From: Filomicrobium sp.
Lineage (GTDB): Bacteria; Pseudomonadota; Alphaproteobacteria; Rhizobiales; Hyphomicrobiaceae
Length of the DNA: 6,092 bases
Direction: 5' to 3'
Assembly (NCBI GenBank): GCA_030607105.1
Contig: JAUWFF010000088.1
Coordinates: forward strand, 1-6,092
In this document: piece after piece, positions 1 to 6,092 of the stretch
Position numbering within the stretch: the first letter of the stretch is position 1
Layout of the letters: every line of letters starts with the position of its first letter
Notes under the pieces: generated by a model
The model's database searches: none
What the model was told of the DNA's origin: nothing
The model's input: only the letters and a program-made list of their open reading frames with translations
Made by a program: the position numbers and the translations under genes

Positions 1-118
1 GCAATAGTCAAATGTAAAAAAGGGCCTTTTGTCCTATGTTTGTTCCGTGCCTCGCCTGGGTCGAATCCTGGCCCTCCGATGGGCGCTGCTGCGACAAATC
101 GGACCGGCGGAGTATTCT

Positions 119-160
119 TTGAGAATCGTCAATTCATTTTATCTGCAACCTTGCTATGCA
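119..160 (+). promoter_or_regulatory. FixK/FNR-type box with possible class II promoter for the candidate small RNA
   Basis: The 14-mer TTGAGAATCGTCAA lies at 119-132 and matches the TTGA-N6-TCAA core bound by FNR/FixK/FnrN regulators. A weak -10 candidate, TATGCA (155-160), follows after a 22-bp gap, the usual class II spacing, where the activator replaces a -35 element. The start would fall near 165-167, just before a long RNA fold. The -10 matches only 3 of 6 consensus positions, so the box is more secure than the promoter. On the other strand I see no usable -10. Confidence 0.5.
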
Positions 161-166
161 AACGAC

Positions 167-309
167 AGCTTCAAGAGCAGCGCTGAAAGATCAGTTGCCC
201 CCCGTGCTGATCACCTCCGTCAGCGTCAAGCTCTTGAGCGGGAATTACAGTCATGCGTAGCTCCCATTTGCGCCACCGGATCCTTCCCTCGGTCCGGTGG
301 CCTTTTTTT
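167..309 (+). ncRNA. Candidate FixK-controlled small regulatory RNA (about 140 nt)
   Basis: The segment folds on paper into one long interrupted stem: 171-178 (TCAAGAGC) pairs with 230-237, 181-186 (CGCTGA) with 220-225, and 189-194 (GATCAG) with 207-212. The 12-nt apical loop contains six consecutive C. The unpaired strand at 213-218 reads ACCTCC, complementary to a GGAGGU Shine-Dalgarno sequence. A strong intrinsic terminator closes the transcript, and a FixK-type promoter would start it next to the first stem. All three helices are perfect, which is hard to get by chance. A 34-codon ORF (156-260) overlaps it but has no ribosome binding site, and its ATG lies inside the proposed -10, so I prefer an untranslated RNA. 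The inferred role is base-pairing control of mRNAs under low oxygen. I cannot place it in a named RNA family. It could also be the structured 3' end of a longer transcript. Confidence 0.5.
272..309 (+). terminator. Strong Rho-independent terminator
   Basis: A perfect 9-bp GC-rich stem, GCCACCGGA (272-280) with TCCGGTGGC (293-301), encloses a 12-nt loop and is followed by seven consecutive T (303-309). This is the clearest intrinsic terminator in the window. It serves plus-strand transcription, and no recognisable protein gene lies between it and the left edge, which supports the small-RNA reading of the upstream segment. Confidence 0.88.
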
Positions 310-505
310 GCCGTCGCACAAGCTAAGTCGTCGTACTCTGGTCTATTTTTGCTCCGGCGTTGACAGCCCACACTGGCCGTTTAGCGTCGGCAATAATTAT
401 GAACGGGACCACTTCGTTGCTTCCGCTTCTGCTGATCCTCCAGCTGCACAGCCTAGGCCGTCCAGCGCTGAAGGCGCTGATGCCGCCTTCGCGGCACCTG
501 ACAAG

Positions 506-791: not shown

Positions 792-2327
792 ATGCCGATT
801 GACACCACACCGTTTCTCCAAGGTTACGCCGCCTGGCGCGTGCAGATGCTTTCGCAACAGGATCCCGCGCTAGCGCAAAAACGTATTCTGCAGGGCCTCC
901 TGAGAACGGGCGAACGGACGCGGTTCGGTCAGGTCCATCGTTTTGAGGAAATCGCGAGCATCGCCGACTTCCAGGCGCGTGTGCCGCTTCGAACATATGA
1001 AGACTACTGGAGGGAATACTGGTCGAAGCCGTTTCCGCGCCTGAAGGATATCACGTGGCCAGGAACAGTTCCTTTCTTTGCCGAAACGTCAGGCACTACG
1101 ACCGGCCGGTCGAAATACGTTCCCGTCAGCTACGAGATGCTGTTTGCCAATTCTTGGGCGGCAAGCGACCTCCTCGTTCATCACATTGCGAACCGTCCAG
1201 GGAGCCGCATCCTTGGTGGCCTTAACTTTTTTCTAGGCGGCAGCACAGGCCTCCGCGAGCTAGCCCCTGGTATATTGAGCGGGGATCTTTCGGGTATCGA
1301 GGCCAGAGTGCTTCCCTGGTGGCTTCGCCCATGGCATTTCCCTCCTGCTGAGATCGAGGAGATGGTGGATTGGGAGGCGAAAATCGAAGCTCTGGCTAAG
1401 GCGGTCATTGGGGAAGACATCCGCGCCATAAGTGGACTGCCAAGCTGGCTATTGGTGCTTTTCGATCGGCTGGAAGAGCTGCGCCCCGATCTCGGGCGCC
1501 ATCTCGTAAACTTCTTTCCGAACTTGGAGATGCTGATCCATGGGGGCGTGAACTTCGGACCCTACCGCCAGAATCTGCTAAGCCGTCTCGAAGGGGGGCA
1601 CGCTGAGACGCGCGAGGTCTATGCCGCAAGCGAGGGTTTCGTCGCCGTGGCCGACCGCAGTGATAGTGAGGGGTTGAGGCTTATCCTCGACAACGGACTG
1701 TTCTTTGAGTTCGTACCCGTAGGCGAGCTCGACCGGCCAAATCCAACGCGACACTGGATGAGAAACGCCGAAGCCGGTGTAAACTATGCAATAGCGCTTA
1801 CAACGTGCGCGGGGCTTTGGGCCTATGTCCTCGGTGACACGCTCGAGTTCGTCACGCTGTCGCCGCCTCGCATCCGCATCACCGGACGCACCGGGCTTAT
1901 GCTCTCGGCCTTTGGTGAGCATCTGATCGGCACCGAGATTGAAGCAGCGGTGAGCGGAGCGGCCAACAGCATCGGCCTTAATGTCATCGATTACACCGTG
2001 GGGGCAGCTGTCGCCGAGCGAAAGGGCGAACAAGGTCAGCATCTGTTCATTGTGGAGTTCGCCGAGGGGCCGCCAGACGCCGCACTCCAAGATCGCTTCC
2101 TGCTCGAGCTAGATCATCAGCTTTCTGAGGCCAACGCCGACTATAGATCACATCGCGCAGCAACCCATGGTCTGCGCCCGCCGCGCTTGATCGCGGTTGC
2201 GCGCGGCACGTTCTATGGCTGGATGCGCCACCGCGAGATGCTTGGGGGGCAACACAAGGTACCACGAGTCATCAACGACGAGACGCTGTTTGCCGAGTTG
2301 CGGCGGTTTGTGGTGGCGGCGTCATAA
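792..2327 (+). CDS. GH3-family acyl-acid amido synthetase-like protein
   Basis: This 511-residue cytosolic enzyme belongs to the GH3 branch of the ANL adenylate-forming superfamily. Plant members activate a carboxylic acid such as jasmonate, indole-acetate or a benzoate with ATP and transfer the acyl group to an amino acid. The three nucleotide-binding signatures are present: TSGTTTGRSK at 99-108 (P-loop-like), YAASE at 277-281, and YVLGD at 345-349, where plants usually have YRxGD. RITGR (362-366) and the C-terminal GQHKVPR (486-492, K489) complete the catalytic set. The length is slightly short of the 530-600 typical of the family, but both domains appear whole. The start is the only ATG/GTG/TTG in the open frame upstream of the conserved N-terminus. 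No Shine-Dalgarno precedes it, so translation may be weak. It stands alone with no pathway partner beside it, so the substrate is unknown. In rhizobia a plant-hormone or aromatic acid is a reasonable guess only. Confidence 0.9.
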   Translation: MPIDTTPFLQGYAAWRVQMLSQQDPALAQKRILQGLLRTGERTRFGQVHRFEEIASIADFQARVPLRTYEDYWREYWSKPFPRLKDITWPGTVPFFAETSGTTTGRSKYVPVSYEMLFANSWAASDLLVHHIANRPGSRILGGLNFFLGGSTGLRELAPGILSGDLSGIEARVLPWWLRPWHFPPAEIEEMVDWEAKIEALAKAVIGEDIRAISGLPSWLLVLFDRLEELRPDLGRHLVNFFPNLEMLIHGGVNFGPYRQNLLSRLEGGHAETREVYAASEGFVAVADRSDSEGLRLILDNGLFFEFVPVGELDRPNPTRHWMRNAEAGVNYAIALTTCAGLWAYVLGDTLEFVTLSPPRIRITGRTGLMLSAFGEHLIGTEIEAAVSGAANSIGLNVIDYTVGAAVAERKGEQGQHLFIVEFAEGPPDAALQDRFLLELDHQLSEANADYRSHRAATHGLRPPRLIAVARGTFYGWMRHREMLGGQHKVPRVINDETLFAELRRFVVAAS

Positions 2328-3106: not shown

Positions 3107-3853
3107 TCAAGGTCGTACGGCAATATCGTTCACGACTAAGTCTACGCCAAACACCATCCAGGCGTCACGCTCGGCAGCCTGCCGCTGGGTCTCGTTGGAA
3201 ACGAGGCCGGTCAGCCTCACGAGCGTATTGCGGACGCCCACCTTGATCTGGCCAGCATTCACAAACGGGTCCTTTTCCAGAACGATACGGACCGCATCCG
3301 CGATGCGGCTAGGACCGTCCTCCTCCGGAGGATCAACTTCTAGACCGTTGATGACATCGCGCACACCGGGAACCCACCAGGCGATTACTCCGGCGAGCCG
3401 CTTGGATACCAGGCTGGGCACTCGGCCGTTGAGAATGACGAGCCCTTGCTTCACTTCGACCAGGATGCTGCCATGGGGGTCAAGCGGGGCCCCACGTACC
3501 AGCTTGTCTCCATTTCCGTCGCGCTCGCGGATCTCAAGCGACTTGAATCCGGTTTCTCCTATCAGTCCGTTGCAGGTGTGAACGCGGATCTCCTTGTCGC
3601 CCATCTGCGCAGCAGGTGCGACGTGCAGATGATCTGCGATACCGGAAACGCCTGGGATCGCTGCCACTTTCTCGAGCGCTATCTTTTTGGCAGCAACGTC
3701 CGGCACCTCTCCATGCAGCAAGACCACGCCGTCACCCTCGATCTTCAGTTCCTCCAGGTGATACGACGGTCCAAGTCGGGGTTCGCTTCGCAGCACTGAG
3801 CGGACCGTCTGCTCCATTTTAAGGATCGACCTCTTGACATCAGAATGCGTCAT
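3107..3853 (-). CDS. Cytoplasmic protein with three BON domains
   Basis: The product is 248 residues and consists of three successive BON modules (alpha/beta folds thought to bind phospholipid or ligand, known from OsmY and related stress proteins). The first spans about residues 11-80, with core GDGVVLLHGEVPDVAAKKIA. The second spans about 85-175, with core QGLVILNGRVPSLVSKRLAG; it is longer and diverged in its first half. The third spans about 182-248, with core NTLVRLTGLVSNETQRQAAE. Each core carries the hallmark V-x-L-x-G turn. No signal peptide is visible, unlike periplasmic OsmY-type proteins, so a cytoplasmic location is likely. I chose the ATG at 3853 because GGAG lies 9 nt upstream. 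An ATG at 3892 or a GTG at 3934 would add 13 or 27 residues with no domain content. The gene lies 182 bp downstream of the 80-residue small gene and probably shares its FixK-type promoter. Confidence 0.85.
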   Translation of the reverse strand: MTHSDVKRSILKMEQTVRSVLRSEPRLGPSYHLEELKIEGDGVVLLHGEVPDVAAKKIALEKVAAIPGVSGIADHLHVAPAAQMGDKEIRVHTCNGLIGETGFKSLEIRERDGNGDKLVRGAPLDPHGSILVEVKQGLVILNGRVPSLVSKRLAGVIAWWVPGVRDVINGLEVDPPEEDGPSRIADAVRIVLEKDPFVNAGQIKVGVRNTLVRLTGLVSNETQRQAAERDAWMVFGVDLVVNDIAVRP

Positions 3854-3948
3854 TTTTCGAAGCTCCAATGCTCCCGCAGATTTGTGGAGCATGTTGGGAT
3901 TTCTTCCGGCGGTTTTCCGTGCAGGGTGGGGCACAGATTTCAGAGCGT

Positions 3949-4414: not shown

Positions 4415-4457
4415 ATTATTCTCTGGCATCCGCCGACAGTGCGTTGACATGCGTCAA
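4415..4457 (-). promoter_or_regulatory. FixK/FNR class II promoter reading left
   Basis: The box TTGACATGCGTCAA (4444-4457) has perfectly matching TTGAC/GTCAA half-sites. Reading leftward, AATAAT (4420-4415, 5 of 6 matches to TATAAT) follows after 23 bp with no -35 element, the class II FNR/FixK layout. The start would be near 4408, giving a leader of about 130 nt before the 80-residue gene. Rightward, the hexamer at the same distance is poor (TCTGCT), so the left-reading genes are the likelier target. A weaker influence on the divergent methyltransferase gene, 140 bp away, remains possible. Confidence 0.65.
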
Positions 4458-5723: not shown

Positions 5724-5765
5724 AATATAACGCACCGGCAACTTCCCAACGTTGATCGATCTCAA
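5724..5765 (-). promoter_or_regulatory. FixK/FNR class II promoter reading left, apparently orphaned
   Basis: The box (5752-5765) reads TTGAGATCGATCAA on the minus strand. After 22 bp comes TATATT (5729-5724, 5 of 6 to TATAAT). The predicted start is near 5717, yet leftward transcription immediately enters the IS-like end at 5708, and there is no minus-strand gene before the methyltransferase 3' end. The only early ATG (5710) opens a frame of 11 codons. Confidence 0.6.
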
Positions 5766-5827: not shown

Positions 5828-5868
5828 TTGACGGATATCAAGGCGCTCAGGTTTCTCGTCGATATATT
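5828..5868 (+). promoter_or_regulatory. FixK/FNR class II promoter for the exported-protein gene
   Basis: The box TTGACGGATATCAA (5828-5841) has TTGAC and ATCAA half-sites. TATATT (5863-5868, 5 of 6) follows after 21 bp. The start is expected near 5875, giving a leader of about 140 nt to the ATG at 6017. This is the best-formed rightward example in the window and points directly at the gene that leaves the window. Confidence 0.65.
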
Positions 5869-6016: not shown

Positions 6017-6092
6017 ATGAACAACACATTAAAAGCGGCCTGCGCCATGGCGTTAGGCCTGTTTGTGGCACTTGCTGTTCCTCTGCCGGCGC
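6017..6092 (+). CDS. Exported protein, N-terminal signal peptide only (runs off the window)
   Basis: Only 25 codons are visible. They read MNNTLKAACAMALGLFVALA, then VPLPA: a lysine near the N-terminus, a hydrophobic core of about 15 residues, and a small-residue end, which together make a Sec signal peptide with cleavage probably just beyond the edge. GGAG (6000-6003) lies 13 nt upstream, and a second purine run, GAGG, abuts the ATG. The protein should therefore be periplasmic or envelope-attached. A FixK-type promoter about 150-190 bp upstream suggests low-oxygen induction, compatible with a c-type cytochrome, copper protein or another respiratory or stress component. The mature part is missing, so I name none. 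Confidence 0.6.
   Translation, partial: MNNTLKAACAMALGLFVALAVPLPA

What the first reader, a model, noticed from the sequence alone, without database searches (positions are those of the whole stretch)
119..309. Candidate oxygen-responsive small RNA with anti-Shine-Dalgarno motifs
A FixK-type box, a weak -10 at the right distance, a start point abutting a three-helix stem, and a perfect terminator define a compact unit of about 140 nt with no credible protein. The loop carries six C and the bulged strand reads ACCTCC, both suited to pairing with ribosome binding sites. Its design recalls FnrS, the FNR-activated small RNA of enterobacteria, but the sequence is unrelated as far as I can tell. 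A rhizobial counterpart under FixK control would be notable.
Basis: partly seen in the sequence, partly recalled or inferred. Interest (0 to 1): 0.75.

Follow-up and report, generated by a model that had tools for sequence, protein, structure and literature searches.

The report
Low-oxygen small RNA gene family
This stretch holds what is likely a small RNA gene, with eight related copies in two related bacteria; eight of the nine copies carry, at the same distance, the exact DNA motif read by low-oxygen regulators, so the RNA would be made when oxygen runs short and is predicted to silence other genes through its exposed runs of C.

Summary
A perfect FixK/FNR-type box (119-132), a weak -10 (155-160), a long interrupted hairpin (168-239), a second hairpin (240-265) and a strong terminator (272-309) define a ~142-nt unit without a conserved reading frame. 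Eight more copies were found: five by blastn, two by a covariance model built from those, one with laxer filters; all in 2 other of 9 genomes of one genus. In 8 of 9 the box TTGA-N6-TCAA starts exactly 56 nt before the same helix base, including two divergent copies found by a model without the box. Seven of nine transcripts fold better than shuffles; the two at one leader locus do not. C runs are held unpaired (15 of 20; shuffled mean 4.3). Exact anti-Shine-Dalgarno sequence is not conserved, and only one of nine tested segments pairs with ribosome sites clearly better than shuffled seeds. Best reading: a lineage-specific, multicopy sRNA family likely activated by FixK/FnrL-type regulators at low oxygen, predicted to pair with G-rich mRNA sites. 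It works like FnrS/PcrZ but matches no known family. Transcription, oxygen response and targets are untested.

The parts
90..97 (+). TGCGACAA block, about 3 helical turns upstream of the FixK/FNR box; candidate second regulator site
   Evidence: At -29/-30 in 5 copies and -35 in one, absent in G006e, G002b and the ninth copy; same block at the same spacing before a FixK-like gene in G006 and G002
119..132 (+). FixK/FNR-type box TTGAGAATCGTCAA
   Evidence: TTGA-N6-TCAA in 8 of 9 copies, 56 nt before GAGCAG/GAGCGG; ninth reads TTGACCAGGATAAA at 55 nt
141..150 (+). ATCTGCAACC, conserved promoter spacer segment
   Evidence: Identical in 5 of 6 close copies, ATCTGCAACT in G006d; not in G006e and G002b
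155..160 (+). -10-like TATGCA; predicted start near 167
   Evidence: Box-to-hexamer distance fits class II geometry (recalled rule); G002b has TACAAT one base earlier
167..309 (+). predicted small RNA, about 142 nt
   Evidence: Box/-10 spacing, hairpin from 168, terminator to 309; ends not measured
168..239 (+). first hairpin: three stacked helices with a C6 loop and an ACCTCCG bulge
   Evidence: 90.8% of 305 pair cells kept over 9 copies (this hairpin plus terminator), 25-40% when slid
198..203 (+). CCCCCC in the apical loop
213..219 (+). ACCTCCG bulge, second C-rich unpaired segment
   Evidence: letters vary between copies
240..265 (+). second hairpin; stem letters replaced between copies, pairing kept in several
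   Evidence: window: 18 of 500 shuffles fold as well; lost in G006c
272..309 (+). intrinsic terminator, 11-bp stem and T7
   Evidence: stem kept in G002a, G006a-d (one mismatch in G006d) and the ninth copy, degenerate in G006e and G002b

Best explanation
The locus is one of nine copies of a structured element without a conserved reading frame, likely transcribed into a ~142-nt trans-acting small RNA when a FixK- or FnrL-type regulator binds the box at low oxygen, and predicted to lower translation of target mRNAs by pairing its exposed C runs with G-rich sites such as ribosome binding sites. Shown here: the family and its restriction to one genus in the genomes searched, the box at constant spacing, the kept pairing in most copies, the unpaired C runs, the broken frames, and the terminator. 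Inferred: transcription, activation by low oxygen, which regulator acts, and action by base-pairing. Because most copies lie beside different genes and end in their own terminators, they would act in trans and add up in dose. At one locus (G002b/G006e) a degenerate copy lies between the box and a small gene that in some relatives follows its box directly; whether the family was born there or a copy landed there and decayed is open.
For: Copies: blastn finds 5 beyond the window; R1 over 103 family genomes gives 8 copies in 3 genomes, a ninth at E 0.005 over the 9 genus genomes, raised to 30.1 bits, E 2.4e-5, by R2, which did not contain it (the best rejected hit has 25.1 bits). Box at offset 56 in 8 of 9 copies, two of them (32 and 59 bits) found by a model without the promoter. 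Structure: z -3.5 to -7.3 in six copies and -2.8 in the ninth; 90.8% of cells paired (0 of 500 shuffles) and covariation score reached by 3 of 500. C runs: 15 of 20 runs of 4 or more C wholly unpaired, shuffled sets mean 4.3, 0 of 100 sets reach it. Regulators: FnrL-like proteins with C-x2-C-x7-C and an ETVSR helix in G002 and G006; an ETVSR protein also in G000 (L197).
Against: No transcript data. G006e and G002b fold no better than shuffles (z +0.3 and +0.2; 117 and 115 of 200), and G006d's own minimum-energy fold differs from the consensus. Covariation is mixed: with 8 copies the score is reached by 91 of 500 shuffles and pairs changed on both sides by 63 of 500; with 9 the latter by 79 of 500. 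The alignments were fitted to the model and the copies are related. The ribosome-site test is weak (window loop 25 of 60, window bulge 8 of 60 shuffled seeds do as well). In the window's genome (68% complete) no protein with the FnrL cysteine pattern was seen; L197 has only C-x2-C, and not all of its eight Crp/Fnr matches were read. Six of nine genus genomes, two of them 70% and 85% complete, show no copy. No target was identified.
Confidence: 0.6

Rival explanations
1. Same small RNA, but the C runs do not block ribosome sites: they bind a protein, or soak up a G-rich RNA (sponge).
For: C runs are kept unpaired while the exact anti-SD sequence is not kept; ribosome-site test weak.
Against: No candidate protein or partner RNA was looked for or found; C-rich unpaired motifs are described as anti-SD in alpha-r14 RNAs.
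Confidence: 0.2
2. A 5' leader or attenuator that controls the next gene in cis.
For: In G002b and G006e the element lies between the box and the same small gene, 33 nt before it, and its terminator is degenerate.
Against: The other copies have no shared downstream gene; in the window the next gene with a family match starts 483 nt after a strong terminator and has a box of its own at 506.
Confidence: 0.1
3. A mobile or repeated element (MITE-like) that carries a promoter and hairpin, without regulatory role.
For: Several copies per genome beside different genes; TGCGACAA at one end and TTGTCGCA (G002a) or GTCGCA (window) just after the terminator.
Against: No exact TTGTCGCA after the terminator in the six other copies printed (G006b has TGTCGC) nor in the ninth; the TGCGACAA block also stands before a FixK-like gene at the same spacing; box and spacing outlast the rest of the promoter.
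Confidence: 0.07
4. A small protein gene on either strand.
For: An antisense frame ending (G/D)ADGGDQHGGQLIFQRCS* is recognisable in the window, G006a, G006b and, with changes, G006c; a forward frame, 29-526, spans the unit in the window.
Against: Among 8 copies translated, the antisense frame is shifted in part of G002a and in G006d and gone in G006e and G002b; the forward 29-526 frame has stops in G002a and G006a, b, c, e; the ATG at 156 is in the window alone. The ninth copy was not translated.
Confidence: 0.03

Closest known systems
FnrS (FNR-activated sRNA of enterobacteria)
   Same: Small RNA under FNR control that represses many mRNAs at low oxygen (review passages, PMC8139620); ours has an FNR/FixK-type box and its own terminator
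   Different: No Rfam match; several copies per genome; different lineage
PcrZ of Rhodobacter sphaeroides
   Same: Alphaproteobacterial low-oxygen sRNA depending on PrrA and FnrL (PMC8139620 passages); ours also has a second conserved promoter block
   Different: No Rfam match; the second regulator and the targets are unknown; the two sequences were not compared directly
RSs0019 and RSs2461 (FnrL-bound sRNA promoters, R. sphaeroides)
   Same: FNR-type binding at sRNA promoters in an alphaproteobacterium (PMC4263372 passages)
   Different: Not functionally characterised there; sequences not compared here
alpha-r14 family / NfeR1 (Rhizobiales)
   Same: Several hairpins with C-rich motifs in unpaired regions and stems that diverge (PMC10746234 passage; PMC3927594 passages)
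   Different: The ultraconserved CCUCCUCCC is absent; G002a comes within one base (CUCCUCCC); no match to any Rfam family
RsaE/RoxS of Firmicutes
   Same: Redox-linked sRNA with C-rich segments (search listing and abstract starts only; details recalled)
   Different: Different phylum and regulator; not compared by sequence beyond the Rfam scan

Membership tests
FNR/FixK-activated small RNA (kind) | FNR/FixK box at an activating distance | tested here: met
   Exact box in 8 of 9 copies at constant spacing; ninth TTGA-N6-TAAA one base nearer
FNR/FixK-activated small RNA (kind) | Discrete untranslated transcript with terminator | tested here: inconclusive
   Terminator and lack of a conserved frame shown; transcript not measured
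FNR/FixK-activated small RNA (kind) | Expression depends on oxygen and regulator | not testable with these tools
   Needs RNA from a carrier or a reporter
FnrS | Match to an Rfam family model | tested here: not met
   No match at gathering score in the window or in loci holding the eight other copies; only an isrD hit at E=5 in window 85-325
alpha-r14 (NfeR1) | CCUCCUCCC in the unpaired part of each of three hairpins | tested here: not met
   Motif absent from all nine transcripts printed; CUCCUCCC once, in G002a
alpha-r14 (NfeR1) | Match to an Rfam family model | tested here: not met
   no match to any of 4227 families at gathering score
PcrZ | Represses photosynthesis mRNAs by pairing | not tested
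   No target search against photosynthesis genes was made

The most novel reading that the evidence does not exclude
A low-oxygen regulon gave birth to its own small RNA: the leader of a FixK-controlled gene became an independent RNA that multiplied, promoter and all, to five copies in one genome, swapping its stems freely while keeping the regulator box, the spacing and the exposed C runs, so that dose and target range can be tuned copy by copy.
Probability: 0.28. Interest if true: 0.62.

Novelty: new member of a known kind. Interest (0 to 1): 0.45.

Why it matters
FNR-activated RNAs are well worked out in enterobacteria, and the papers seen here describe only a few low-oxygen RNAs in alphaproteobacteria. 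This family offers sister copies at different divergence, a locus where the element sits in a leader, and a built-in test of which RNA features selection keeps. If active, it adds a post-transcriptional layer to the FixK/FNR regulon of an environmental lineage and shows how such RNAs multiply.

Tried and rejected
By blastn against all loci then held none of the 118 is a homologue (longest chance match 29 bp). R1 over 12 of the 118 gave weak hits in L108 and L092, R2 over 26 of the 118 one weak hit in L050; L108 is the end of a coding gene plus a hairpin; L092 and L050 were not read.

Rejected after reading: G099, G080, G085, G013, G074 (terminators or coding sequence), G379 (terminator), G112 (a 41-bp blastn match), and five R2 hits without a box.

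Organism: L062 (titled Hyphomicrobium sp.) matched 58 of 59 genomes, the 22 best-scoring places all in the window's family; this suggests, but does not prove, Hyphomicrobiaceae. Globin link: the TGCGACAA-box site at G002:C317 lies downstream of a globin gene, not before it, so it was dropped as support. No match in plasmid or phage records. A four-sequence alignment of the second hairpin cut a stem and was not used. The claim that the leader locus is the birthplace was weakened, and its odds lowered from 0.35 to 0.28, when folding the two leader copies showed no excess stability.

Full report
What was checked. The window is contig 44 of a 1.97-Mb, 68% complete genome (G000). The fold of 160-309 has z -6.3 with 0 of 200 shuffles as stable. 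Boxes TTGA-N6-TCAA number five in the window (119, 506, 4444, 5752, 5828) against 0.05 expected, so the contig looks like part of such a regulon (inference); the one at 506 lies 280 nt before the GH3-family gene.

Relatives. Blastn with window 110-320 found five more copies, and over 103 genomes of the family nothing outside the genus but a 41-bp match that I rejected. A covariance model of the transcript alone (R1, from those 6 copies) found 8 copies in 3 of 103 genomes, plus hits in five genomes rejected on reading. In an even draw of 397 genomes of the order it found, at E up to 1e-4, the window's own copy and one terminator. Over the 9 genus genomes with laxer filters a ninth copy appeared (G002:C179, E 0.005); R2, built without it, scores it 30.1 bits, E 2.4e-5 for one genome, against at most 25.1 bits for five hits rejected for want of a box. 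Counts: G000 1, G002 3, G006 5; none seen in the six other genus genomes, two of which are only 70% and 85% complete. The ninth is 51-60% identical to the others.

Flanks. Homology between close copies runs from about -36 to +196 relative to the box. The window and G006b share more, back to the window's first bases (73% over 319 nt), so their upstream sides may be the same locus; the window and G002a share to about +225. Downstream genes differ.

Promoter. In 8 of 9 copies TTGA-N6-TCAA starts exactly 56 nt before GAGCAG (GAGCGG in G006d) of the first helix; the ninth has TTGACCAGGATAAA at 55 nt. The two divergent copies G002b and G006e (32 and 59 bits) were found without any promoter in the model, which makes the box independent evidence. 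Box and -10 stand as in class II FNR promoters (recalled rule); the hexamer itself is poorly conserved. A block TGCGACAA lies at -29 or -30 in five copies and -35 in one, and is absent in G002b, G006e and the ninth. The combined pattern gave 10 sites in 4 of 9 genus genomes, 0 for the reversed control: six are the copies, two lie about 80 nt before the presumed start of a Crp/Fnr gene in G006 and G002 at the same spacing, whose best NCBIfam match is FixK, far below that model's cut-off; one lies downstream of a globin gene and one inside a 680-codon open frame in G005. The block resembles half of a RegR/PrrA-type site (recalled, untested).

Regulators. Crp/Fnr-family matches are in 5 of 5 genomes searched. 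G002 and G006 hold proteins with the ETVSR helix and C-x2-C-x7-C whose best NCBIfam match is FnrL, below its cut-off. In G000 one protein with ETVSR was seen (L197); it has C-x2-C but not the third cysteine. Not all matches were read.

Structure. Seven of nine transcripts fold better than shuffles: window, G002a, G006a, b, c (z -5.8, -4.9, -5.4, -7.3, -4.7), G006d (-3.5, with a different fold), the ninth (-2.8). G006e and G002b do not (+0.3, +0.2). Over 9 copies and 35 pairs, 90.8% of 305 cells pair (25-40% when slid); 0 of 500 shuffles reach that, 3 of 500 the covariation score, 16 of 500 the cells changed on both sides, but 79 of 500 the pairs changed on both sides and 168 of 500 the pair types. 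With 8 copies the figures were 4 (cells paired), 91 (score) and 63 (pairs changed on both sides) of 500. The second hairpin is not in that count: its stem letters differ between groups, and its stability beats shuffles in G006a, b, d and G002b (4, 1, 0, 2 of 500), modestly in the window (18), not in G002a (258) or G006e (92); G006c has lost it (500). Structure is supported in most copies, not proven by covariation.

C runs. Of 20 runs of four or more C in the nine transcripts 15 are wholly unpaired in the minimum-energy folds; 100 shuffled sets average 4.3 and none reaches 15 (relatedness is not controlled; G006e has no such run). G002b and the ninth copy show C6 in the loop of the second hairpin. 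Exact anti-SD letters are not kept. In 174 presumed genes of G006 (0.26 Mb; a Shine-Dalgarno-like core in 71 upstream segments, 25 coding ones) all nine segments tested, from six copies, pair better upstream of starts than in coding sequence, but shuffled seeds often do as well: window loop 25 of 60, window bulge 8, G002a loop 8 and bulge 14, G006a/b loop 2 and bulge 30, G006c bulge 39, G006d loop 28 and bulge 54; the true anti-SD 4 and the alpha-r14 motif 1. G006e, G002b and the ninth were not tested. The ribosome-site reading is plausible but weak.

No protein. Among 8 copies translated, the ATG of ORF 156-260 is in the window alone; the longer forward frame (29-526) and the antisense frame are interrupted or shifted in several copies.

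Origin. G002b and G006e are at the same locus: the same small gene (MLTLEDL...) follows 33 nt after the element, and that stretch is 74.5% identical over 322 nt. The gene has homologues in 22 of 103 family genomes. Of the 25 loci read, these two have the box at -206 and -230; seven have an exact box at -67 to -175 and no element found by R1; three have a looser box; thirteen have none within 420 nt. Either the element arose in this leader and spread, or a copy landed there and decayed; the lack of excess fold stability in both and their degenerate terminators fit decay as well as ancestry. The ninth copy lies about 400 bp from a triple-BON gene whose protein is 80% identical to the window's.

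Comparison with what is known. No Rfam match. FnrS, NarS and PcrZ are low-oxygen sRNAs (passages of PMC8139620), and FnrL binds two sRNA promoters in R. sphaeroides (passages of PMC4263372). Alpha-r14 RNAs carry CCUCCUCCC in unpaired regions with diverged stems (passages of PMC10746234 and PMC3927594). Passages of PMC11475020, PMC6515984, PMC6686037 and PMC4842269 named no FixK-controlled sRNA. Paper searches listed no work that I recognised as this family; only listings and those passages were seen, and most subscription papers are not held. Verdict: a real, new, lineage-restricted family of a known kind; expression and targets remain to be shown.

Noticed in passing
window 792-2327 +: GH3-family protein; best NCBIfam match is lyso-ornithine lipid synthetase OlsH (550 bits, cut-off 620), with a FixK/FNR-type box at 506 upstream.
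   Followed up: partly
window 4444-4457, 5752-5765, 5828-5841: Three more perfect TTGA-N6-TCAA boxes in 1.4 kb, the last two before an ORF that begins near 6017 and runs off the contig.
   Followed up: no
window 3107-3934 -; L245 2056-2802 +: Triple-BON protein; an 80% identical relative in G002 lies about 400 bp from the ninth RNA copy.
   Followed up: partly
L152 5171-5464 +; L150 9669-10091 -: Small ~97-residue protein (MLTLEDL...) whose G002 form has no Pfam or NCBIfam match, in 22 of 103 family genomes, with an exact FixK/FNR-type box within 420 nt upstream at 9 of 25 loci: a candidate low-oxygen small protein.
   Followed up: partly
G006:C378:35437-35480, G002:C502:22398-22441: Composite promoter TGCGACAA + box before a FixK-like Crp/Fnr gene, same spacing as in the RNA genes.
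   Followed up: partly
L213 (G002:C317): Same composite motif just downstream of a globin gene; no clear gene behind it, possibly another unannotated RNA.
   Followed up: no
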